Shown here piece after piece: positions 11,180 to 39,356 of a DNA stretch of 64,000 nt. The notes under the pieces were generated by a model. It saw nothing but the letters and a program-made list of their open reading frames with translations, ran no database searches and was not told where the DNA came from. The stretch is from Gemmata massiliana (GTDB lineage Bacteria; Planctomycetota; Planctomycetia; Gemmatales; Gemmataceae): assembly GCF_901538265.1 (NCBI RefSeq), contig NZ_LR593886.1:9817738-9881737 (forward strand), written 5' to 3'. The translations under genes and the position numbers were made by a program. How positions within the stretch are numbered: position 1 is the first letter of the stretch; every line of letters begins with the position of its first letter.

Positions 11180-14100
11180 TCACTCCCGGGTTACGAATTC
11201 GTCGAAGTTCAGGACCGCCCGGGCTGTGGCGGTCCAGGCCGCACGCGCCACGGCTTCTTGCGCGGTGCCGGCGACGGTCGCGGCGCGCTTCGGATCGTCC
11301 GTGAATCGTGCGTACTGCGTCTCGTAGAACTTGGTCAGCAGCGACAACTCTTCGGCGGTCGGCGGGCGCACGAGGCACAGTCGCACGAGGTATTGCACCC
11401 GCTCGGTCGTTGAGCCGTCGTGTGCGGCCGCCCGTCGGCCGAGCGACTGCGCCACTTCGAGCAGCACCGCATCGTTCAGCATCGTGAGTGCTTGCAGCGC
11501 GGTGTTTGACACCTCGCGCCGGGCGGTACAAGCCTCGCCACTAGGGGCATCGAACGTGTTGGACATCGCATACGGGGCCGTGCGCTTGGTGAACGTGTAC
11601 AGCCCGCGCCGGTACCGGTCCTCGCCCTCGCTCACCTTCCAGGAGAGTTGACCATAAGTCCCCTCGGTCGTCACTCCCGGCGGTTGCGGCGGGAACACGC
11701 TCGGGCCATACATTTTCGTCGAGAGCAACCCGGCCGCCGTCAGCGCCGAATCGCGGATTTGCTCCGCTTCGAGGCGCACCCGCGGGCCGCGGGCCAGGAG
11801 CTTGTTCTCCGAGTCTTTCGCCAGCAATTCGGGCGTCACTTCGGACGCTTGCCGGTAGGTCGCGGACGTAACGATGAGCCGGTGTAGTTTCTTCACGCTC
11901 CACCCGCTCTCGCGGAACTCCAGCGCGAGCCAGTCGAGCAGTTCCGGGTTCGTGGGGACTTCGCCCTGGTAGCCGAAGTCGTCGAGTGTGCGAACGAGCC
12001 CACGACCGAAGAACGAGTGCCAGTGGCGGTTTACAGTGACTCGCGCCGTGAGCGGGTTCTCCGGCGCCACGAGCCACTTCGCGAACGTGAGCCGGTTCAC
12101 CTCCACCCCTTTCGGTAACGGCGGCAGCACCGTGGGGACACCGGGTCGTACTTCCTCTTTCGGTTCCAGGAACTCACCGCGGTGGTGGCGGAATGTCGGC
12201 CGTGGGTGGTCCGTCGGGCGCTCGCGCATCACGAGCGTCGTTGGGGGCACGGGAAGCTGCTTGCGAAGTGCATTAATCTCGTCGCGGGCGGACTTCAGTT
12301 CCGGCGCGATCGTGAGCCAGTGACGGAACAGAACAGCTCGTTCCGCACGAGTGAGCGATTCCGCGGGGTGCGTGAAAAGCTCCTCTACCTCCGCGGGCAG
12401 GTCACGGGCCGCGACCGGGCGGCTCTCGGTTGTCACCGCGAGGCGGAATCGGCCGAGACTGGCGGCGTAGTGGCGCTCGAAGAGGAGTTCGAGTTGTGCG
12501 CCTTTCGTTGTGAGCGGTTGCGCGAGGTTGAACACCGCGGATGAAGCGACGCCCGCTCGTCCGCTTCCGGCCCAACCGGTGAACGGGTGGCCGTCCAGCG
12601 CCATTTTCGCGCCCAAGTTCGCGCGCACGTGCGATTCGGAGGCCCCCGAGATCGCCACCGGCTTTCCGTTCGTGGTAAGCGTGAACTCGCTCAGCAGGAA
12701 ATCGCCCTTCGGTCCCTCGTAGTACGCGCGGCCGGGGCCAGAATCGGGTAAACGGCTGTCTGGTAAGGCTTCGATCCGAATCGCCGTGATTCCGGCGGGC
12801 AGATCATTGAGAGTGAGCGCGTACAAGTCGCGTTTCTGAGCGTCACCGCTCGCGAACACCGAATCGTCCGCTTGCAGCGCGAGCTTCGTTGGTGCCGCTT
12901 CCATCTTCGTTGGCCGTACCGTCGTCCACTTCACCGCTTGTTTGCGCCCCGCAGACACCCACTCATCGAACGCGGTCGCGAGCACTTCCGGGGCGACTTT
13001 CTTGATCGCCTCCTCTTGTGCAACGCGGATCTTCGACTCAATTTCGGCCCGCTTCTTGGTGAGTTCCGGCGTCGGGACCGGGAGTTCCGGTTCGTCCGCG
13101 TTGTTCAGGAGCGCGAAGAAGCGGAAGTACTCGGTGTGCGTGATCGGGTCGAACTTGTGCGTGTGGCACTGCGCGCACCCAACGGTGAGTCCGAGCCACA
13201 CGGTTCCCGTCACGCTCGTGCGGTCGGTGATCGCGTAGTAGCGGAACTCCTGCGGGTCGATGCCGCCCTCTTCGTTGAGCATCGTGTTGCGGTGGAACCC
13301 GGTCGCAATCTGAGAAGCGAGCGAAGGAGCAGCTCCCTTTTCGACCTTAAGCATGTCCCCCGCGAGTTGCTCGATCGTGAACTGGTCGAACGGCATGTCG
13401 TCGTTGAGCGCGCGAATGACCCAATCGCGGTAGGGCCAAATGGAGCGCCCGCGGTCCTTTTCGTAGCCGTTGGTGTCCGCGTAGCGGGCGAGGTCGAGCC
13501 ACTTTCGCGCCCAGCGCTCGCCGTAACGCGGCGACTTCAATAACGCATCGACCACCTTCTCGTAAGCGTTCGGCGACCGATCCTTGACGAATGTGTCCAC
13601 CTCTTCCGGCGTGGGCGGAATACCAATCAGGTCGAGGTACACCCGGCGAATCAGTGTGTAGCGGTCCGCTTCGGGCGACAGGGCTAGCCCCTCTTTTTGG
13701 AGGCGAGCCGCGATGAACGCATCAATGGGATTGCGGACGGTTACCTTCGCGTTTGTGATCTCGGGCACGGGAGGCCGCTTCGGTGGCACGAAGCTCCAGT
13801 GGGCCGCATACGGCGAACCGGCGGCGATCCACGCCTTCAGCGTCTGCTTCTCCTTGGCTGTGAGAGCAATTTTCGTCGACGGCGGTGGCATCACCTCGCC
13901 TTCGTCGGTCGTTTCGATGCGCCGGAGGAACTCGCTGTCGTTCGCTTTACCGAGAGTAGCTTCCGCCCCCTCGCGCATATCGAGCCGGAGCTTGGCCTTG
14001 CGGCTCTTCTCGTCCGGGCCGTGGCACTTGAAGCACCGCGCAGCCAGAATCGGCCGCACGTCGCGGTTGAAATCCACCTGAGTGTGGGCCAACTCGGGAG

Positions 14101-14191
14101 CGGGCTTCGCGGGCGGATCGGCGAATGCAACCGTCCCCGCGACTGCGCCGGCGAGCAAAACAAATATGGACGTGGGCCAGAAGGCCTTCAT
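11180..14191 (-). CDS. PSD1-type cytochrome c protein (PSCyt1-DUF1549-DUF1553)
   Basis: About 1003 residues from the ATG at 14191, which begins a normal signal peptide (MKAFWPTSIFVLLAGAVAG); an in-frame GTG/ATG-type start further up at 14269 is less likely. After it comes a Planctomycetes cytochrome C domain with haem motif CFKCH, then DUF1549 (from DAFIAARL, with PPTPEEVDTF and a second CAQCHTHKFDP haem-like motif), a middle carbohydrate-binding-like region, and DUF1553 to the end. These large exported proteins are linked in the literature to breakdown of complex polysaccharides, but their chemistry is not settled. It is the first gene of the operon with DUF1501. Confidence 0.93.
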   Translation of the reverse strand: MKAFWPTSIFVLLAGAVAGTVAFADPPAKPAPELAHTQVDFNRDVRPILAARCFKCHGPDEKSRKAKLRLDMREGAEATLGKANDSEFLRRIETTDEGEVMPPPSTKIALTAKEKQTLKAWIAAGSPYAAHWSFVPPKRPPVPEITNAKVTVRNPIDAFIAARLQKEGLALSPEADRYTLIRRVYLDLIGIPPTPEEVDTFVKDRSPNAYEKVVDALLKSPRYGERWARKWLDLARYADTNGYEKDRGRSIWPYRDWVIRALNDDMPFDQFTIEQLAGDMLKVEKGAAPSLASQIATGFHRNTMLNEEGGIDPQEFRYYAITDRTSVTGTVWLGLTVGCAQCHTHKFDPITHTEYFRFFALLNNADEPELPVPTPELTKKRAEIESKIRVAQEEAIKKVAPEVLATAFDEWVSAGRKQAVKWTTVRPTKMEAAPTKLALQADDSVFASGDAQKRDLYALTLNDLPAGITAIRIEALPDSRLPDSGPGRAYYEGPKGDFLLSEFTLTTNGKPVAISGASESHVRANLGAKMALDGHPFTGWAGSGRAGVASSAVFNLAQPLTTKGAQLELLFERHYAASLGRFRLAVTTESRPVAARDLPAEVEELFTHPAESLTRAERAVLFRHWLTIAPELKSARDEINALRKQLPVPPTTLVMRERPTDHPRPTFRHHRGEFLEPKEEVRPGVPTVLPPLPKGVEVNRLTFAKWLVAPENPLTARVTVNRHWHSFFGRGLVRTLDDFGYQGEVPTNPELLDWLALEFRESGWSVKKLHRLIVTSATYRQASEVTPELLAKDSENKLLARGPRVRLEAEQIRDSALTAAGLLSTKMYGPSVFPPQPPGVTTEGTYGQLSWKVSEGEDRYRRGLYTFTKRTAPYAMSNTFDAPSGEACTARREVSNTALQALTMLNDAVLLEVAQSLGRRAAAHDGSTTERVQYLVRLCLVRPPTAEELSLLTKFYETQYARFTDDPKRAATVAGTAQEAVARAAWTATARAVLNFDEFVTRE

Positions 14192-14599
14192 GGAATCGCC
14201 TCGTATCTCTGAGCTACCCCGCTGTAACCGTTCGGGCAGTTGTCTCTCAGTATCGTAGGTTGCGAGCAATTGAGGGTTGTGACCGCGTTTTAAGCATCTA
14301 GCGGTGTCGGTTGGCGGGGTGGGTGAAAACCGCTCGTGTGGTAGGCGAGGTTATTGTGCCACTAATCGTGCCCGAACGGAACCCGAAAGTGATCGTAGTT
14401 ATGAAGTTGCTTGGTTCGATACTTTGGGAATGAAAAGGAATCACTCCGCATCTGGGTGATTTCGTTCGCGCCGGGCCAAAAACGAACATGCGGGTCGCGC
14501 CGGGCACTCCGTTTGCGCCCACCTTGCTGCTTGCTTCTGCCCGGTCGTACAATGCCCGGTATCATTTGCGGGTCTGACCCACGGTTCACGGTGCGCGCG
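14192..14599. other. Divergent intergenic region
   Basis: About 400 bp between the divergent PSD1 and dxr genes. It should hold both promoters. I see no conserved frame, RNA or strong repeat in it; the dxr frame is open through most of it but lacks the family's sequence there. Confidence 0.4.
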
Positions 14600-15805: not shown

Positions 15806-18153
15806 ACCCGCCGGGGGCGCCCGCTCCCGGTGGCGAACCGGACCACAGCGGTGAGGTCTCCGCGGTCAAGTCATGGGTGCGCGAGAACGCCTTCTCGCTG
15901 GTCACCACCGCCGTCGTGATCGCGCTCGTGTGCGCGTATCTCGACCCGATCGACACCCTCAAGGTGGTGCTCGGGCTGGGGTTCATCATCTTCATCCACG
16001 AACTCGGGCACTTCCTCGCGGCGAAGTGGTGCGACGTTCACGTCAACATGTTCAGCATCGGGTTCGGCCCGGCGGTGCCGTTCTGCCAGTACAAGTGGGG
16101 CGAGACCACGTACAAGATCGGCATCATCCCGTTGGGCGGGTTCGTGCAGATGGTCGGCGAAGGCGACGGCGGTGACAACGAGGAGGCCGAGGACGACCCG
16201 CGGAGCTTCCGCAAGAAAACCGTGGGCCAGCGGATGCTCATCATCTCCGCGGGCGTGGTGATGAACATCATCCTCGGGATGGCGTGCTTCGTTGCCGCGT
16301 ACCTGCACGGCGTTCAGGAGAAGCCGGGCACAATCAACACCGTCGAGAGCGGTGGGGCCGCGTGGCGCGCCGGGATGCGCACCGACGACCACATCACCGA
16401 AATCGGCGGGCGCAAGAAACCGTTCTTCGATGACATTCGCCCGATCGTGATGAGCACCCAGAAGGACGAACAGGTGCCCATCGAGTGGGAGCGGAACGGG
16501 GTCGCGTCGGGCGCCAAATCCGTTTCCCCGCTCCGCGAAGAGGGGCAGCGGTTCCCGCAACTCGGGGTCTCGCCGCCGTACAACTTGGTCCTCATGACCG
16601 GGCCGAAGCGGTCGACGTTCACACCACTGACCGCCGGCTCACCGGCCGCGGCCACCGACCCGAAGTTCCTGCCCGGCGACCGCGTCGTCGCGATGAGTGA
16701 CCCCGCGAACCCCGCGACTATAACGCCCGTCGCGACCTACAGCGATTATCACCGCCGCATGGTATTGCTCGCAGGTAAGGACGTGACGTTCCATGTGGCC
16801 CGTGTCGGGGCCGGGAGCGAGACGCAACCGACCGCAATTACCGTCAAACCTTCGTACCGCTACGACCTCGGGATGCGGATGCGAATGGGCGAGATCAGCG
16901 CATTGCGCGTGAGTGGCAGCGCCGAGAAGGTGGGCGTGATCGCCCATACCGAAGGCGCCCAGCCGAAGCGCGGCGACCGGATCAAAGCGGTCATGCTGCC
17001 GCCGGACGAGAAGGGCAAGCGCGTCTGGTACGTCAACGGTTTGGATTGGAAGAAAAAGGAGTTCGAGACGCCCGATCAGAAGGCCGTGGACGTGCGCCCG
17101 CTCGACCCGCTGCTGCTGCCGCACCAGTTGAACCAGTGGGCGGCGGGTAAGGCCGGCCCCCTGTCGGTGGAACTGGTTCTGTCGCGTGAGGCGCACCCGA
17201 CCGACGAACAGGTCCGGCTGAAACTCGACTTCGACCCGTCGTTCCGGTTCGATCGTGAGACGCAGGTGCTCCCGAACAGCCCGTTACCGATCAGTGGGCT
17301 GGGATTGGCTTACTGGGTCGAACCGGTCGTCGATGACGTCGCGTCGGACGGTCCCGCGGCCAAGGCCAAAACGACTCCCGGCGAGCTTCCGGACGGGTGG
17401 TACTACCGCATCCGACGATCCCTGGGGCTGGACCCCCGAGACGTGGAACCGGGCGGGGAAGAGAAAGCGCTCCGGCCGAATGACACCATCGTCGGTGTGC
17501 GATTTAAGGGCCAGGGGGCCGACGGCAAGCCGTTACCCGGTGAGTGGAAAGACGAACTCCAGGCGCACCCGTGGGCGGCAGTTGATTTCACCTATCAGAG
17601 CCTTCCGCCGTTCGAGATCGACCTGAAAGTGAAGCGCAGCGAGACCGAGACGTTCACGGTAACGCTCCAGGGGCGGCCGAACACGGAGTTCCCGACCAGC
17701 GAGCGCGGACTGGTGTTCCAGTCCGAGAACCAGATCCAGAAAGCGGCCGACGTGGGCGACGCGATCGAACTGGGTGCCCGGCGCACCGGGCGGTTCATCA
17801 AGGTCGTGTACATGAACCTGTACGCGATGGCGTTCGGGCGCGTGAGTGTGAAGACGATGAGCGGGCCGCTGACGATCGCGACCGTGTCCTACCGGTTCGC
17901 GGGCGAGGACTTCTGGCAGTTCCTGTTGTTCCTCGGCATGATCTCGGTGAACCTCGCGGTAGTGAACTTCTTGCCGATCCCGGTGCTGGACGGCGGGCAC
18001 ATGGTGTTCCTGATACTCGAAAAGATCCTCGGGCGCCCCGTGCCGGAGCGCATGTTCGCGATCGCGATGTACACCGGCCTGTTTTTGATCTTATCTCTGA
18101 TGGTGTTCGTGATCTTCCTCGACGTGGGGCGACTGTTCTTCGGCAAGTTCTAA
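15766..18153 (+). CDS. rseP: RseP-type site-2 membrane metalloprotease, enlarged
   Basis: An intramembrane zinc protease (M50) that in other bacteria cleaves anti-sigma factors and signal-peptide remnants. HELGH lies near residues 78-82 in the first helix, and the second zinc-binding motif [12 protein letters not shown] near the C-terminus; both are intact. It is about 795 residues against ~450 in E. coli; the extra length is a large region between the catalytic helices with at least one recognisable PDZ-like part ([17 protein letters not shown]). I favour the TTG at 15766 because AGGAGG lies 7 nt before it; a GTG at 15742 has no such site. The start is inside dxr, so translation is probably coupled. 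Confidence 0.9.
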
Positions 18154-19936: not shown

Positions 19937-21241
19937 TCACTTGGCGGGGCCGCAATACCGCCCCAGGAACAGCGTTGCGTTGGTCGTGTTGTCGCGGATC
20001 GCGAACACGAACGGCCGGTCGGCACGGAACTCCTTCGGCTGCGGGTTGGCGCTCACGATCTCCCGCCCCAGGATTACGGCAGTAGCGGCAGCGGCCTCGG
20101 TCCCTTCCTCGTCCACATCCACGAACGCCTTGTGCAGGACGTGCGTGATGAACAGGTGCTCGTCGCTGGTGTGCATCCCGGTGAAATCGGCGTCCCGGAA
20201 CGCAGCTTTCATGCCGAGATCAATCAGGGCCGCGTTAAGCGAGTACTCCGTTTCGATTTTGAACCGCGGAAGGAACACGTTCACCGTTTGCAATTTCATC
20301 GCGACGTTCGTTACCGTCTTGCTCGTGAGCGCCGTGACGATGTGCTCAACTGTGGTAGCTCCCTTCGGCAAAAACACGAGCATCGAAAGCTCGTTGTTGG
20401 TGTACGGCAGCTCCAGCACTTGCACCGGGTTTGAAGCGCGCGTGAGCCCGAGGTCGAACTCTCCGTACTCGAACCGGCCCGTTTGGGCCATCAGCGGAAC
20501 ATCGACCTTTGTGCCGTCACCGCGGGTGAACGGCGCGTCCTTCGTATTCTCCTTCGCGAACCTGTGCAGCCAGGCGCTTTTAAAGTAGATGGCGTTCGTC
20601 AACACCATGCGCGTGAGTGGGGAGAGTACGCCGTCCGGAATCAAGTTTTTGATCCTCTTCTGCGTTTCCTTCTCGACCCACGAATTGATCCGCTGGCGGG
20701 ACTCGTTCGGTTTGCGGAAGTCGGTTTCGACCACACCCGACCCGTAGTGCTTGCGCGTGAGGTCCATGAATTCTTTGCGCCACGGGTAATCCTTCATCGC
20801 CCAAATCGCGTTCGCGACATTCAGCTCGTAACCGCGCTTGGTGAACGGACCGGAGGGTTGTTCCGCACGACTCGGGAGCGGGCGCGTCGGACGGTTCAGA
20901 TGTGCGATGAGCGCGCCGAATGCCGGGTGCGGATCGGTAGGCAGATGCAGCGTTTTCTGCATCTCTTCGAGCGTCTTGCCTTTCGCACCGGCGCTGGTCA
21001 TACCGAGAGCGGCTTCGATGCTGAACGGCGAGAAGAACGTGCTGCCGTCACCCTTCGCGAGTCGGCGGTGCAACTCGTGGCCGAAGGCGTTGATCCCCGC
21101 GGCGAGTTCCTTCGCTTCGCGCAGAGGATCTTCACCGCCGAGGTTGGGACAGGCGCGGAGCCGCGAGCCAAAGAGCCCGCCCGCGGTGAGGGCGCTGGCG
21201 GCGGTCAGGAAACGACGACGGGTGATGTGAGACGGGTGCAT
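19937..21241 (-). CDS. Serpin family protein with Tat-like signal
   Basis: A full-length serpin (434 residues), a suicide inhibitor of serine or cysteine proteases. The N-terminus TRRRFLTAASALTAGGLFG is a twin-arginine-type signal, so it should act outside the cytoplasm. Core motifs include NAIYFKSAWLHRF, SMLVFLPKG and the C-terminal RPFVFAIRDNTTNATLFLGRY. The hinge of the reactive loop, EEGTEAAAATAV, has the small residues that mark inhibitory serpins. Counting from P17 the scissile bond falls near GRE-IVS, so P1 is Glu or the adjacent Arg. The target protease is unknown. Confidence 0.93.
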   Translation of the reverse strand: MHPSHITRRRFLTAASALTAGGLFGSRLRACPNLGGEDPLREAKELAAGINAFGHELHRRLAKGDGSTFFSPFSIEAALGMTSAGAKGKTLEEMQKTLHLPTDPHPAFGALIAHLNRPTRPLPSRAEQPSGPFTKRGYELNVANAIWAMKDYPWRKEFMDLTRKHYGSGVVETDFRKPNESRQRINSWVEKETQKRIKNLIPDGVLSPLTRMVLTNAIYFKSAWLHRFAKENTKDAPFTRGDGTKVDVPLMAQTGRFEYGEFDLGLTRASNPVQVLELPYTNNELSMLVFLPKGATTVEHIVTALTSKTVTNVAMKLQTVNVFLPRFKIETEYSLNAALIDLGMKAAFRDADFTGMHTSDEHLFITHVLHKAFVDVDEEGTEAAAATAVILGREIVSANPQPKEFRADRPFVFAIRDNTTNATLFLGRYCGPAK

Positions 21242-34002: not shown

Positions 34003-35196
34003 TTAGAAGAAGAACCCGATGCCCACGTTGAACCCGTGGATCAGTCGGAAGACTTTGGTCCCGTAGTTCGGGTCGATGTTCCCGAAGTTGTACCCGACCG
34101 GTTCACGCATGTACCGGGTGTTGAAGAACGACATCCCGGTGTACCCCAATTTCAGTTGAACGCCCTCGATCGGGTACATCCACAGGTTGAGGTCGGCGGT
34201 GGCACTCGGTACGAAGTCGAACGACTCGCGGCCGAACTTGGACTGCGTGGTCTTGTCGCCGAGTTCGTACTTGGCCCGCTGCTTGGCCACGTCCATGTAC
34301 GCGGCGGCCGTCAGGTCGAGGCTGGCCGAGAACATGTTGCCGAGGTAGACCTCGTGCCCGCACCCGACGAACAGACCGTACATCCGCTGCGAGAGCGAGT
34401 TGGTGTACACGGCCGCGCTCTGCGGCGTGGAGTTCCCGGAGTTGTCGAGGTCCACCGTGCGCCAGGTGAAGCGCTCGAAGAACCAGGCGAACCGGGCACC
34501 CGACAACCCGTACACGCTGCTCATTTCTGTCGCGAACATCGGGATGCGCATCCCGAGTTCCGCCTGCTGATACCGCTGCGTGAACTTCGTGTCCATGATG
34601 TCGGCCGCGTTCCAGATGCCGACCGTGTTGCTCCCACCGTTGGTGCTGTTGTCGAACGCAGTGTCCTGCAGCGGGCCGTTGAACAACTGGTTGAAGTTGT
34701 ACACCGGGGCCGACAAAAACGTGTCGGCCAGGTCGGGCCGGGCGCGGTACCCGAGCGGGTACTGCGAGGCCCCGGCCGAGTAGTGGGCGTCGTACAGTTG
34801 CAAGTAATTGGCGTAGATCCGGGTACCGGTGTCGAACTTGTACCCGATTTCTACTTTGAACCCGGGCTGGAACTCGCGCCGGCCCATCTTACTGGTGTTC
34901 AGCGCGTCCGCCCCGGTCCCGACGAACGTACCCGGGACGCCGGTGATCGCGCCCTGAGCGTCGAAGAACCCGCGTACCCCGATCGACTGATTCCCCAAGG
35001 CCCGCGTCTGCGTGAGCATGACGAACTCGGCCCCGAAGTAGAACCCCGGCTCCCCGGCCCTCCCGGTCGGGATCGGAATTACGGGATCGCTGTTAAGAGG
35101 TGTTTGGAACCCGCCCTCCTGGGCCGCGACCTCGCCCGGCCACCCGATCGCGACCACGGCCGCCAGCACGGCTCCCCCGATGTACCGATGGCGCAT
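34003..35196 (-). CDS. BBP7 family outer-membrane beta-barrel protein
   Basis: A 397-residue protein with a signal peptide (RHRYIGGAVLAAVVAIGWPGEVAAQ) and a body of alternating short strands ending in a terminal aromatic strand (FNVGIGFFF), as expected for an outer-membrane barrel. The segment PGFYFGAEFVMLTQTRALGNQSIGVRGF matches the BBP7 family (named after a Legionella protein; common in planctomycetes). Its role, porin or adhesin, is not known. Pro/Gly-rich promoter-side DNA separates it from the sigma-factor gene, which is divergent. Confidence 0.85.
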   Translation of the reverse strand: MRHRYIGGAVLAAVVAIGWPGEVAAQEGGFQTPLNSDPVIPIPTGRAGEPGFYFGAEFVMLTQTRALGNQSIGVRGFFDAQGAITGVPGTFVGTGADALNTSKMGRREFQPGFKVEIGYKFDTGTRIYANYLQLYDAHYSAGASQYPLGYRARPDLADTFLSAPVYNFNQLFNGPLQDTAFDNSTNGGSNTVGIWNAADIMDTKFTQRYQQAELGMRIPMFATEMSSVYGLSGARFAWFFERFTWRTVDLDNSGNSTPQSAAVYTNSLSQRMYGLFVGCGHEVYLGNMFSASLDLTAAAYMDVAKQRAKYELGDKTTQSKFGRESFDFVPSATADLNLWMYPIEGVQLKLGYTGMSFFNTRYMREPVGYNFGNIDPNYGTKVFRLIHGFNVGIGFFF

Positions 35197-35881
35197 AACC
35201 CGGCTCCCCCTTCAACGGACTGCATGAACGACCGGCCGTCGCAGGCTCCCCAACCTGCTTCGACCCGGCCCCCCGGTTCGTCCGGAGGGCCGATCCCCTG
35301 AATACGGCACTTTGCGCACGTGTTGCGGAAAGTCGCGGGGACGATAACGCGGGCTCCGATCCGGTCAAGCGTTTCCGCCCGAAAATTGGCACTTCACCCC
35401 GGAAAAATCAGGCGTCCGGAGGCACGCGGCGCGAAGTTGAAAGGGCTGTTAGTGCGGGGGTAAACCGGGTCGCGTCACCCGCGCTCGCGACCTAGGTAAC
35501 CGGCGCAGAATTGGTACCCGCGGACTCGTCTTTGGAGGATGATTTCGAGGGACCAAAATGAGGAATCGTGGCTCCGTCTGGGTTCCTCCGGAATGAAGAG
35601 AGGATTCCCATCGCGTTTCCGACCATGATTTTCGACGCTCCATTTATTGCATTGCCTCAACGGATCACGAGTTCACAACACCTTTTGCGCAGCACACGTG
35701 TCTGCGAACCGGGTAAAATCGAACTACTTTCCGTGGGTGCCAAAAAATCACTCCGAGCGCGCGGGCGTTCGCGGGCAATACACGGTGACGGACACGAGTA
35801 GTTCCGGGTTCCGGGCCGGAAGGTCACATCCACTACAGGGTGTTCTCTTACGATCCGGGACCGTTGAAAGAGGCTCTCATT
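35197..35881. other. Divergent intergenic region (~680 bp)
   Basis: Between the divergent BBP7 and sigma-factor genes. It is somewhat less GC-rich near 35600-35740. I find no convincing gene or RNA; it presumably holds promoters for both sides. The sigma-factor frame is open to a GTG at 35840. Confidence 0.4.
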
Positions 35882-38299
35882 ATGCCCACCGGGCAAGCCG
35901 AACGGTTGATGCCCACGCTCCGACGGGTCGTGATGGCCCGCCAGTCGGCCGCGCGCACGGACGGCGAGCTACTGAGCGCGTTCGTTCAAAACGCGGGTGC
36001 GACAGAGTACCCCCACGAGGGCGCACGGTCCCCGGAGGCGGCCGACGCCTTTGCGGAACTGGTCCGGCGGCACGGGGCGATGGTGCTCGGGGTGTGCCGG
36101 CGCGTCGCGGGCGACTACACCACCGCGGACGATGCGTTCCAGGCCACGTTCCTGGTGCTGGCCCGGCGCGCCGCGTCGGTGCGGCCCCGGGAACGGGTCG
36201 GGAGCTGGCTCTACGGTGTGGCGTACCGCACGGCGCTCAAGGCCCGAATGGTTCTGGCCCGTCGCCGGTCCCGCGAAAAGCAGGTGGACGTCATGCCCGA
36301 ACCGACCGCCCCGTCCGCCGTGCCCGCGTGGAGCGATCTCCAGATCGTGATCGACGAGGAACTGGCCCGGCTCCCGGACAAGCTCCGGCTCCCGGTCGTG
36401 CTGTGCGACCTGGAGGGCCGGCCCCAGCGCGAAGTGGCGAAACACCTGAACGTGCCCGCCGCCACGCTCGCGACGCGCCTGGCCTCGGCCCGGCGCACGC
36501 TCGCGGCGCGCCTCACGCGCCGGGGCGTGGCCCTCTCGGGGGGCGCGCTCGCGGGGCTTCTGGAGCAGCACGCTTCCGCGTCGGCGGTGCCGCACACGCT
36601 GGCTACGGGCGTCGTCCGGGCGGTCGAATCGGGAGCCACACAGGGCGCACTGAACTCACTCGTGTCCGCTCAAGCCGTTCACCTATCGGAAGGAGTGATA
36701 CGAATGATGATGATCGCCAAATTGAAAGCGGTCGCGGTGCTCGCCGCGGTCGCCCTGGCGCTCACGACCGGACTGGGCGTGGGGCTCGTACCGGCCGCTG
36801 CCGGCGACCAGCCCGCCACAACAAACGAACCGAACGCGACGAAGAAGGCTCCCGTAACGACGGAATCGGTTAACGAGTACGTCGCGGAGCGCCTGAAGAA
36901 CATCCGGGCCGAAGAACCGAGTCTCGACGACCCGACCTTCCTCCGGCGCCTCAGCCTCGACGTGCGCGGGACGGTCCCCACCGACGTGGAGACGTGGTTC
37001 TTCGTCTCCGACGGGGACGAAGACAAGCGCGCGAAGGTGGTGGAGTGGATCACCGATGACGACGCGAAGCGAGCTGCCATCGCGAAGAAACTCGGCGTGC
37101 CGATCGAGCGCGTCCGGGTGGTCCGCGCCCGTTTGGTGACGGACGACGTTAAGGGCGTGGACGTGAGTGTGGCCGAAGTTGTAGACGTTCCCGTTGTTAC
37201 GACCACGAAGGTGATCGAAACGCTCAACTTCACTCCGGACGGCAAGAAGCAGGTTGTGAGTGACGAAGTGAAGATCGTGCGGGGGGACAAAGTCGTCATC
37301 GAAAAGGATGCGCGGGTCAATCGGGCCGTCGTGCGCGTGACCGACGAGAAGACCGCGAAGAAGGACGATCACCTAGGGGTTTGGTCCGAGGCTGTGGTCG
37401 GCTCGAAACCGGCGAAGGACACGTTCTTTCAGTCTTGGACCGCAACCAGCGGAGACAAGGACGTGTTCCTGACGTGGGCGTCCGACGGGAAGCCGAGCGG
37501 AGACAAGTTCACCACGACCGTCGATCTCTTCGTCGCGACCCCGGACAACACAGACGCCGAGTTCCTGAAGCGCGTGCTCACCGACGTGCGCGGGAACGGG
37601 CCGACCGCGCTGGAACTCAAATACTTCACCGAGGACAAGGATCCGAAGAAGCGCGAGAAGCTCATCGACACGCTTCTGAAAGATCCGGCGGTGCAGAAGA
37701 AACTCGGCGACGAGTGGAAGAAGAAGATGCTGGCCCTTAAGTCCTCGAACCAGAAGTCACAGGTGGAATTCTTCTACCTCGTGACACCGGATCACGTGAT
37801 ACCGGAAGGGAAGAACCAGAACCGGGTTGTTCCCCTTGAGCTGACCCCGGCGAAGCCGTTCGTCGTGCCGCTCCCGCCGACCACCCCGAAGGTACCGAAA
37901 CCGCCGGCCCCCAGCGCGAAGCCGTTCGTTGTGCCCGACGCCCCCGCGGTCCCGGCGAAGCCGGCCACCCCGAAAACGCCGGCCGCACCAAAGACACCCC
38001 AATCCGACCGCCTGGAGAAGCTCGTTGGCGAGTTGATCGCGGCCCAAAAGAGTGACGAGGCCATTCTGGAAGCCATCACGCTCGCGACCCTCAGCCGCTT
38101 GCCGACGGACGCCGAGAAGAAGCTCGTCCTGGCCGTTGCTAGCACCGCAGGTGATCGCAAGACCGCGTGGGTCGCGGTGGCTCGCGCCCTCGCCGGGACG
38201 GATGTGAAGAAGGTGGACGTTATCGTCCCCCAATTCCGAGTTGAACTGGTCAACCCGGCCGCACCTCCGGCCCCGCCCGTTCCGCCCGCGAAACCGTAG
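35882..38299 (+). CDS. ECF sigma factor fused to membrane anchor and DUF1549/DUF1553-like exported region
   Basis: An 805-residue protein from ATG 35882 (GTG 35840 possible). Residues ~55-215 are an ECF sigma factor: region 2 (FAELVRRHGAMVLGVCRRVAGDYTTADDAFQATFLVLARRAASV) and region 4 (LPVVLCDLEGRPQREVAKHLNVPAATLATRLASARRTL). A span at ~279-305 follows. The outer part holds two segments like the start of DUF1549 (326-400, TFLRRLSLDVRGTVPTDVE; 552-616, EFLKRVLTDVRGNGPTALE), a Pro-rich spacer, and a tail like the end of DUF1553 (709-773, TLATLSRLPTDAEKKLV). The sigma part must be cytoplasmic and would be held at the membrane. ECF factors with long C-terminal extensions are known from Gemmata; this domain content is my reading. 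Confidence 0.85.
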   Translation: MPTGQAERLMPTLRRVVMARQSAARTDGELLSAFVQNAGATEYPHEGARSPEAADAFAELVRRHGAMVLGVCRRVAGDYTTADDAFQATFLVLARRAASVRPRERVGSWLYGVAYRTALKARMVLARRRSREKQVDVMPEPTAPSAVPAWSDLQIVIDEELARLPDKLRLPVVLCDLEGRPQREVAKHLNVPAATLATRLASARRTLAARLTRRGVALSGGALAGLLEQHASASAVPHTLATGVVRAVESGATQGALNSLVSAQAVHLSEGVIRMMMIAKLKAVAVLAAVALALTTGLGVGLVPAAAGDQPATTNEPNATKKAPVTTESVNEYVAERLKNIRAEEPSLDDPTFLRRLSLDVRGTVPTDVETWFFVSDGDEDKRAKVVEWITDDDAKRAAIAKKLGVPIERVRVVRARLVTDDVKGVDVSVAEVVDVPVVTTTKVIETLNFTPDGKKQVVSDEVKIVRGDKVVIEKDARVNRAVVRVTDEKTAKKDDHLGVWSEAVVGSKPAKDTFFQSWTATSGDKDVFLTWASDGKPSGDKFTTTVDLFVATPDNTDAEFLKRVLTDVRGNGPTALELKYFTEDKDPKKREKLIDTLLKDPAVQKKLGDEWKKKMLALKSSNQKSQVEFFYLVTPDHVIPEGKNQNRVVPLELTPAKPFVVPLPPTTPKVPKPPAPSAKPFVVPDAPAVPAKPATPKTPAAPKTPQSDRLEKLVGELIAAQKSDEAILEAITLATLSRLPTDAEKKLVLAVASTAGDRKTAWVAVARALAGTDVKKVDVIVPQFRVELVNPAAPPAPPVPPAKP

Positions 38300-38423: not shown

Positions 38424-39356
38424 TCATTCGATGGGGAGCGTCTTGCCCTTTGTCGCGAGCAGACGGCCGAGCTGATCGGCGCTCAAGCGCGGGTCATCCG
38501 TGAGGAGCGCGCCGAGTTCGGTCAGCACAAAATCTTCCAGCTCGTCCCCGGCCCAACCCTCGGCAATTAACTTTCCGCCAACGAATTCGAGCGCGCGGTC
38601 GCGGAGCTTGTCCGTGCGCCGGGTGAGCGTCCCCTCGTTCAGGTTGAACAGTTTCGCGGCCTCGCGCTGACTCAACCGGTACCGCCAGCGGAGCCCGAGT
38701 AACAAGCGCTCATCGTCGTCGATGGAGCCGAGCCACTCGCGCGCGGCGGAGACGAACGTCTCGTGCCACCGGTCCGAGCCGTTCGACTTCGGCGTCTCCA
38801 TCGGGAGCGCGATTTCGTCGTCCGGGAGGGCCGTGACACCCGTGGTCTGGCGCAACTTCGAGAGGTGCCAGTTCTGGAACACGCGGATCAGCCACGGGGC
38901 CAGCGGGCGCTGGCCGTCGTATCGCGCCAGCACCGGGAGCGTGCCCTCGCTCTCGGGGGCGATCAGGTTGCTCCAGAACTCGGTCACGGCCGTGTCCTGG
39001 CGCTCCTCGTTGCGCGGGTAGAGCCGCACCGCCCGGGCGCGGAGCGCATCCACGAGCAGGCAGTCGCTGCGCCCGGTGCGGGCGTTGAACAGTGCCTCCC
39101 ACGCGGCGCTCTGCCCCTCCAAACACCCGACACACACCAGCCAATCGACCGCGTACAGCCCCTCCAGGTACCCCGCCCACGAAACCGGCACTTGGTTCTT
39201 GGGAAGGAAGATGTGGAACGTGCGCTGGAGGTGCGCCAAGAACACCGGCTCGGCGAGCTTGACCGCGGGCATCTGGAGCCGCGCGAAGTGGTAGAGCAGC
39301 GTGACGCGGCCCTTGTCCGCGGGGCTGAGCGTCGGCAGTTCCGGGGGTGCAATCAC
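38424..39356 (-). CDS. Sigma-70 family (ECF-like) RNA polymerase sigma factor
   Basis: A 310-residue protein. The centre carries a region-2-like segment (FWSNLIAPESEGTLPVLARYDGQRPLAPWLIRVFQNWHLSKLRQTTG) and the C-terminal half a region-4 helix-turn-helix (DDDERLLLGLRWRYRLSQREAAKLFNLNEGTLTRRTDKLRDRAL). An N-terminal ~90-residue extension is specific to this group. It should direct RNA polymerase to an unknown regulon. No anti-sigma factor gene is adjacent. It converges with the sigma fusion gene, so two sigma factor genes end within 130 bp of each other. Confidence 0.82.
   Translation of the reverse strand: MIAPPELPTLSPADKGRVTLLYHFARLQMPAVKLAEPVFLAHLQRTFHIFLPKNQVPVSWAGYLEGLYAVDWLVCVGCLEGQSAAWEALFNARTGRSDCLLVDALRARAVRLYPRNEERQDTAVTEFWSNLIAPESEGTLPVLARYDGQRPLAPWLIRVFQNWHLSKLRQTTGVTALPDDEIALPMETPKSNGSDRWHETFVSAAREWLGSIDDDERLLLGLRWRYRLSQREAAKLFNLNEGTLTRRTDKLRDRALEFVGGKLIAEGWAGDELEDFVLTELGALLTDDPRLSADQLGRLLATKGKTLPIE

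What the first reader, a model, noticed from the sequence alone, without database searches (positions are those of the whole stretch)
35882..38299. ECF sigma factor fused through a membrane span to PSD1-like pieces
The protein has sigma regions 2 and 4, then a membrane helix, then two segments that align with the start of DUF1549 (residues 326-400 and 552-616) and a tail that aligns with the end of DUF1553 (709-773). Both are parts of the exported planctomycete cytochrome protein encoded here at 11180-14191. The haem-binding CxxCH motifs are absent. This looks like a sensor that keeps a sigma factor at the membrane, possibly reporting on DUF1549/DUF1553 partners or substrates. It could be released by a protease such as the RseP homologue encoded in this window.
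Basis: partly seen in the sequence, partly recalled or inferred. Interest (0 to 1): 0.75.

Follow-up and report, generated by a model that had tools for sequence, protein, structure and literature searches.

The report
Membrane-tethered sigma factor with borrowed sensor
In bacteria of the Gemmata group, a gene-switching protein is fused across the cell membrane to three small pieces of a planctomycete protein family of unknown function; evolution has preserved the pieces and a DNA signal in front of the gene, which suggests a dedicated outside-to-inside sensor.

Summary
Window 35882-38299 (+) encodes an 805-aa ECF sigma factor, one membrane span and a tail with three helical modules. M1 (346-406) and M2 (554-622) are copies of the first ~60 residues of DUF1549; M3 (711-774) matches the last ~60 residues of DUF1553. 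The rest of both domains, and CxxCH, are absent. The architecture occurs once per genome in 18 of 95 Gemmataceae genomes (3 of 39 genera), its sigma domains form one clade, and it was not seen outside that family in samples of the class and phylum. Modules and span are under stronger purifying selection than most connecting segments. New here: a two-block DNA element, CCGAGCG-N13-GGGCAATA, lies 31-182 bases before the start codon in 16 of 19 genes exactly (3 with changes) and has no other exact copy in the window's genome: a dedicated, possibly autoregulatory, promoter. The host genome has at least 103 such ECF genes, nearly all tailed, so a tethered, tailed ECF is a known kind; the DUF1549/DUF1553 tail is a new variant. 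Sensing of DUF1549/DUF1553 partners and release by RseP remain inference; the RseP gene is unlinked. Signal-peptidase cleavage of the tail is a live rival.

The parts
35753..35780 (+). Two-block element CCGAGCG-N13-GGGCAATA (candidate promoter/operator); a less constant conserved stretch follows to 35798
   Evidence: Located; upstream of 16 genes of this family exactly and 3 with changes; no other exact copy in own genome
35882..38299 (+). Whole gene: ECF sigma factor with membrane span and DUF1549/DUF1553-module tail, 805 aa
36059..36244 (+). Sigma-70 region 2 (aa 60-121), contains Cys72
   Evidence: Pfam PF04542
36350..36502 (+). Sigma-70 region 4 (aa 157-207), contains Cys175
   Evidence: Pfam PF08281
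36716..36781 (+). Membrane span (about aa 279-300)
   Evidence: Hydropathy; conserved in orthologues; Ka/Ks 0-0.09
36788..36802 (+). Signal-peptidase-like [AV]-x-A motif after the span (within aa 303-307)
   Evidence: [AV]-x-A in 17 of 17 readable genes, 8 different residues in the middle (16, G121); A-x-A not enriched in the genome's ECF proteins at large
36917..37099 (+). Module M1 (aa 346-406), start of DUF1549
   Evidence: Pfam (31.1 bits), hhalign, permutations
37112..37534 (+). Variable insert (aa 411-551)
   Evidence: No Pfam hit; fast evolving; WD40 hit in 1 and FG-GAP hits in 2 of 9 tails of A4
37541..37747 (+). Module M2 (aa 554-622), start of DUF1549
   Evidence: Pfam (42.2 bits), hhalign, permutations
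37871..38005 (+). Proline-rich linker (aa 664-708)
   Evidence: Sequence
38012..38203 (+). Module M3 (aa 711-774), end of DUF1553
   Evidence: hhalign 96%; own-genome PSD1 match E 2.8e-6; Ka/Ks 0.09-0.12; no Pfam hit alone

Best explanation
A one-component, membrane-tethered ECF sigma factor. The sigma domains lie in the cytoplasm, one span crosses the membrane, and the exported tail carries three small helical modules taken from the two ends of exported DUF1549-DUF1553 proteins, held apart by a variable insert and a proline-rich linker. The modules act as a docking or sensing surface for an envelope ligand or partner, plausibly the same partners that full-length DUF1549/DUF1553 proteins bind. 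A signal on the tail leads to its removal and release of the sigma domain (regulated proteolysis, as in IutY), which then transcribes its own gene from the dedicated upstream element, giving a positive feedback switch. Shown: the architecture, module homology, conservation and selection, one sigma clade, and the conserved element. Inferred: export of the tail, sensing, proteolytic release, autoregulation.
For: Architecture and homology. Orthologues keep sigma, span, M1, M2 and M3 in this order. Purifying selection on sigma, span, M1, M2, M3; insert, juxtamembrane segment and proline linker more relaxed in the two more distant comparisons. Topology: net charge higher before than after the span in 89 of 99 ECF proteins of the genome, 6 ties. 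Sigma domains of the window gene and 17 orthologues form one clade, support 0.994, among 119 sequences. Conserved element upstream of the gene, no other exact copy in own genome. Precedents seen in passages: IutY and ECF52 SCO4117 (PMC8999054, PMC5826349); autoregulation predicted for around 55% of ECFs (PMC8103513).
Against: No ECF/DUF1549 gene adjacency enrichment, so no partner evidence. No anti-sigma domain in Pfam at E 1. The element does not look like the textbook AAC/CGT ECF promoter (PMC8103513), and no regulon beyond the own gene was found. In the closest pair (Gemmata sp. IIL30) the selection contrast is small: M1 0.22 against insert 0.25 and proline linker 0.17. Structure model of the tail is weak overall (mean pLDDT 44.6), with no PDB match at E <= 0.001. 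RseP gene unlinked.
Confidence: 0.5

Rival explanations
1. The span is a cleavable internal signal peptide: signal peptidase I cuts at the conserved [AV]-x-A site, so one gene yields a membrane-held sigma factor and a separate exported module protein.
For: 17 of 17 readable genes have A or V at -3 and A at -1 with eight different residues at -2 (16, G121), the pattern expected of a signal peptidase I site (rule recalled). The span has a Met- and Lys-bearing front like a signal peptide.
Against: Among 99 ECF proteins of the own genome A-x-A after the span is no more frequent than after shuffling (54 against 51.4), so alanine richness can explain much of it. The G016 copy, left out because its frame is broken, reads VPAAGDG there.
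Confidence: 0.22
2. The tail is a cytoplasmic or peripheral regulatory extension that works by protein interaction, as proposed for WD40-bearing ECF57 members; the hydrophobic segment is not a true span.
For: At least 31 of 100 ECF tails of the genome match a WD40-type propeller family, and the cysteine pair described for ECF57 is present here and in 88 of 101 paralogues; PMC8999054 (passage) suggests protein interaction for ECF57.
Against: Strong hydrophobic segment in nearly all the ECF proteins examined with positive-inside bias; the modules come from proteins that look exported (the four short relatives printed begin with signal-like segments, judged by eye).
Confidence: 0.15
3. The tail is evolutionary debris left by domain capture.
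For: The insert and linkers evolve fast and vary in length, and one genome (G016) carries the gene in several frames.
Against: The tail is kept in 18 genomes, with Ka/Ks of 0.06-0.27 for M1, M2 and M3 in three comparisons.
Confidence: 0.04

Closest known systems
ECF57 sigma factors of planctomycetes (WD40-tailed; passages of PMC8999054)
   Same: ECF with long C-terminal extension; one cysteine each in sigma regions 2 and 4; at least 103 such genes in this genome
   Different: Tail is DUF1549/DUF1553 modules, not WD40; assignment by the ECF57 profile was not testable
IutY, ECF243 (Pseudomonas putida; passages of PMC8999054)
   Same: Single polypeptide with sigma and a membrane-bound C-terminal part; proteolysis by Prc and RseP releases the sigma
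   Different: IutY carries an anti-sigma factor tied to an iron-siderophore signalling system; here no anti-sigma domain was found
SCO4117, ECF52 (Streptomyces; passages of PMC5826349)
   Same: Sigma, span, proline-rich region and a terminal ligand-type domain; autoregulation suggested
   Different: Has a zinc finger and a carbohydrate-binding domain; described as exclusive to Actinobacteria
PSCyt2/PSD1 (DUF1549/DUF1553) proteins
   Same: M1 and M2 equal the start of DUF1549, M3 the end of DUF1553
   Different: The remainder of both domains including CxxCH is missing; fused to a sigma factor
ECF RB10049 and PSC2/PSD1 protein RB10051 in Rhodopirellula (Studholme et al., as cited in passages of PMC2754498)
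   Same: Links an ECF sigma factor with a DUF1549/DUF1553 protein
   Different: There separate genes; here one fused protein

Membership tests
ECF sigma factor (group IV sigma-70) | Sigma regions 2 and 4 only | tested here: met
   PF04542 60-121 and PF08281 157-207 above cut-off; TIGR02937 70.2 bits against 42.9
ECF57 | Two conserved cysteines that could link regions 2 and 4 | tested here: met
   Cys72 and Cys175, the only cysteines of the protein; both in 88 of 101 paralogues. The exact ECF57 positions are not known to me
ECF57 | WD40-like repeats in the extension (prevalent in the group) | tested here: not met
   No WD40 hit in the window tail; at least 31 of 100 ECF tails of the genome have one
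ECF57 | Match to the ECF57 profile of the current ECF classification | not testable with these tools
   That profile library is not held
IutY / ECF243 type | C-terminal membrane-bound anti-sigma region | tested here: inconclusive
   Span present; no anti-sigma domain in Pfam at E 1; the NCBIfam list showed 25 of 53 families
IutY / ECF243 type | Release by Prc and RseP proteolysis | not testable with these tools
   RseP homologue exists in the genome; needs experiment
ECF52 type | Zinc finger plus carbohydrate-binding domain | tested here: not met
   Neither found by Pfam at E 1
PSCyt2 (DUF1549) | Full 209-position domain | tested here: not met
   Only profile positions 2-63 and 18-82
PSCyt2 (DUF1549) | CxxCH haem-binding motif | tested here: not met
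   None in the protein
PSD1 (DUF1553) | Full 244-position domain | tested here: not met
   No PF07587 hit; only the end matches

The most novel reading that the evidence does not exclude
A self-contained single-output switch: a sigma factor whose exported module chain is cut off at a conserved signal-peptidase site or by a triggered protease, the modules acting as decoys or docking pieces of the DUF1549/DUF1553 machinery, and whose only strong promoter in the genome is its own, so that the circuit amplifies itself and reports the state of a planctomycete envelope pathway of unknown function.
Probability: 0.15. Interest if true: 0.75.

Novelty: new variant of a known kind. Interest (0 to 1): 0.52.

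Why it matters
[quoted passage not shown] A sigma factor that keeps their end modules, under selection and behind a dedicated DNA element, gives a handle: its ligand and its promoter could reveal what those proteins bind and when they are needed. It would also be a test case for the 100 or so tethered ECF sigma factors of this genome; in the passages I saw, none of that kind had been studied beyond detection in a proteome (PMC8567305).

Tried and rejected
(1) Three copies of one module: M3 against M1 or M2 is weak (probability 3% and 13%), though M2-M3, M3-DUF1549 start and DUF1549 start-DUF1553 end beat all 100 permutations, a lenient test; not claimed. DUF4214 at the end of one DUF1553 protein is sub-threshold (E 0.081). 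(2) A helix-turn-helix after M1 (HTH_23, E 0.0014) falls to 0.078-0.14 in pieces and appears in 2 of 9 tails; rejected. (3) Adjacency of ECF and DUF1549 genes: no enrichment. (4) A regulon from the element: sites with up to 2 mismatches are no more common than for the reversed pattern (18+22 against 20+23). (5) Element shared by other ECF genes: best score 3.5 in 29 paralogue loci with upstream flank, against 67 here; best elsewhere 9.5 in 77 other stretches; the other 70-odd ECF genes were fetched without upstream DNA and not tested. (6) Synteny: of eight loci (L071-L078) only Gemmata sp. IIL30 keeps the neighbours tested. (7) Folds: tail model mean pLDDT 44.6, best in M2 (70-83) and M3 (63-82), lower in M1 (43-76) by blocks of ten; Foldseek no match at E <= 0.001; VIA-align best Z 5.0, which may be only a common arrangement; model of a DUF1549/DUF1553 relative unusable, pLDDT 38.8. 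(8) PDB by sequence: none. (9) A-x-A enrichment after the span in the genome's ECF proteins: none.

Rows dropped: of 107 ECF loci, three (L017, L034, L036) were replaced by longer refetches, giving 104 entries. L143 was dropped because the script picked a neighbouring ECF gene already counted, so the gene at G000:C1:1592866-1593486 was never examined. Three with tails under 60 aa (L089, L109, L129) were left out, leaving 100; one more without a clear span is missing from the 99. One search scored 150 of 265 candidates, so 103 is a minimum. G016 was left out of the tree and of the [AV]-x-A count because its frame is broken.

Full report
What is there. The ORF at 35882-38299 (+) encodes 805 residues. 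Pfam finds sigma-70 regions 2 and 4 and two stretches of PSCyt2/DUF1549, 65.8 bits against a cut-off of 29.8; NCBIfam gives the ECF superfamily model TIGR02937 above its cut-off. A strong hydrophobic segment follows region 4. The protein has two cysteines, 72 and 175, one in each sigma region, and no CxxCH, whereas the PSCyt1-PSCyt2-PSD1 protein at 11183-14269 has two CxxCH.

The modules. M1 (346-406) and M2 (554-622) are each the first ~60 residues of DUF1549, and each passes the Pfam cut-off alone. Profile comparison gives 98.7% and 99.6% probability against the start of DUF1549 and 96.0% for M3 (711-774) against the end of DUF1553; none of 100 column-permuted profiles reaches these scores. 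The set used for the comparison was collected through hits of the tail, mainly of M2, so Pfam is the independent test for M1 and M2; the DUF1553 ends in that set were not chosen through M3. M3 also hits a PSD1 protein of the own genome at E 2.8e-6, 45% identity, but gets no Pfam hit by itself. All 9 tails of alignment A4 carry PSCyt2.

The family. A profile of the tail finds the gene in 18 of 95 Gemmataceae genomes, 3 of 39 genera: 10 of 19 genomes of the window's genus, 6 of 6 and 2 of 4 in two others, one gene per genome. The same 18 are the only ones among 397 genomes drawn from the class, and only the window's own among 392 drawn from the phylum (only three candidates per genome were scored there). 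A nineteenth, G006, has the element and the sigma part at a contig end, tail not seen. The named nearest relative is Gemmata sp. IIL30, 93% identical over the whole protein. Sigma domains of the window gene and 17 orthologues form one clade, support 0.994, against 101 paralogues, all from the own genome, so the fusion most likely arose once. In G016 the gene lies in several reading frames: sequencing errors or a broken gene.

Selection. Against Gemmata sp. IIL30, G012 (L043) and G002 (L044), Ka/Ks is 0.06-0.25 for sigma, 0-0.09 for the span, 0.17-0.22 for M1, 0.06-0.27 for M2 and 0.09-0.12 for M3, but 0.25-0.96 for the insert, 0.30-1.37 just after the span and 0.17-0.78 for the proline linker; the linker between sigma and span gives 0.19-0.36. 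In the closest pair the contrast is small for M1 (0.22 against 0.25 for the insert and 0.17 for the proline linker). Synonymous change against G002 is high in several segments, so those ratios are rough.

The setting in the genome. The genome has at least 103 ECF genes of this kind; 100 have a tail of 60 residues or more after the span, median 348. At least 31 of these 100 tails match a WD40-type propeller family (25 of 132 families were shown). Of the 66 PSCyt2 matches of the genome, the two in this gene are the only ones in an ECF gene, judged by position. Charge favours N-in for 89 of 99 proteins with a clear span, with 6 ties. The cysteine pair is present in 88 of 101 paralogues, which fits the description of ECF57 in a passage of PMC8999054.

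The upstream element. Upstream DNA of the window gene and nine orthologues shows CCGAGCG-13 bases-GGGCAATA, exact in nine of the ten and with one mismatch in G002, followed by a less constant ACGGTGACGGACACGAG; most of the other upstream DNA differs except in the closest relatives. More orthologues carry it. A blind exact search of 95 Gemmataceae genomes gave 19 places in 18 genomes: 16 lie upstream of a gene of this family, including G006 and G065, where contig ends split the gene (for G065 the sigma part and the tail are on different contigs and are assumed to be one gene); the other 3 (in G014, G033, G058) are not upstream of an ECF gene; the reversed pattern gave 1 place. G138 also differs at one base and G121 has a degenerate version with a 12-base spacer. 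So of 19 genes with upstream DNA, 16 have it exactly, two with one mismatch and one in a degenerate form. It ends 31 to 182 bases before the start codon, 101 in the window. In the own genome the only exact copy is this one, and near matches are no more common than for the reversed control. It is a dedicated element of this gene, probably a promoter; that the sigma factor itself reads it is inference, from the frequency of predicted ECF autoregulation (PMC8103513, passages). It does not resemble the AAC/CGT boxes named there.

The end of the span. In 17 of 17 genes whose frame can be read, the span ends in [AV]-x-A with eight different residues in the middle (16, G121), as at a signal peptidase I site (rule recalled). 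In 99 ECF proteins of the own genome A-x-A is no more frequent than after shuffling (54 against 51.4). Cleavage is thus a live rival, not a result.

How it probably works. The closest studied cases, seen in passages, are IutY, whose sigma is freed by Prc and RseP from a membrane-bound C-terminal part, and SCO4117, with span, proline-rich region and carbohydrate-binding domain (PMC8999054, PMC5826349). By analogy the tail here senses or docks in the envelope and its removal frees sigma. The RseP homologue of the window (15967-18099) could do the last cut, but nothing ties it to this gene. No gene-neighbour evidence points to DUF1549/DUF1553 partners: within 5 kb, 3 of 63 DUF1549 genes have an ECF gene against 6.6 expected. 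In Rhodopirellula an ECF gene has been suggested as regulator of a PSC2/PSD1 protein (Studholme et al., as cited in PMC2754498, passages).

Novelty. Searches for DUF1549/DUF1553, planctomycete ECF extensions and PSCyt2/PSD1 terms in the held library listed no report of this fusion or element that I could recognise from listings and passages; most subscription papers are not held, and the planctomycete ECF surveys cited there (Jogler 2012, Wiegand 2020) were not read. Tailed ECFs with a membrane span are a known kind, so I file this as a new variant.

Noticed in passing
window 38427-39356 (-): Convergent neighbour with only weak HTH and sigma region 4 hits (E 0.0005 and 0.007, both below cut-off); 310 of 310 residues identical in Gemmata sp. 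IIL30 while the ECF protein is 93% identical.
   Followed up: partly
window 34006-35196 (-): Outer-membrane-protein-like gene upstream, Legionella_OMP just under its cut-off (25.1 against 25.4 bits); 98% identical over most of its length in Gemmata sp. IIL30.
   Followed up: no
own genome G000:C1:2128445-2132537: Another ECF gene with a long tail is followed on the same strand by a short DUF1549/DUF1553 gene, an operon-like pairing worth comparing with this fusion.
   Followed up: no
L216 (G014:C1:31892-31919): A second exact copy of the element in G014, with a spacer almost like that of its own ECF gene, ahead of an ATG whose product begins like a signal peptide: possible target gene, in one genome only.
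   Followed up: partly
L079 523-573 and DUF1553 ends: The start module of DUF1549 and the end module of DUF1553 resemble each other weakly (53%; 0 of 100 permutations), and one DUF1553 end hits DUF4214 below threshold.
   Followed up: partly
insert between M1 and M2 in orthologue tails (A4, e.g. L076, L078): Pfam gives a WD40 hit in one and FG-GAP hits in two of nine tails (which tails and where was judged by eye), suggesting a propeller-type ancestor of the tail.
   Followed up: partly
window 19940-21241 (-): A full-length serpin (PF00079, 2e-112).
   Followed up: no
G016:C1:2322025-2324311: The orthologue in G016 switches reading frame several times between sigma region 2 and the tail, while the upstream element is intact.
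   Followed up: partly
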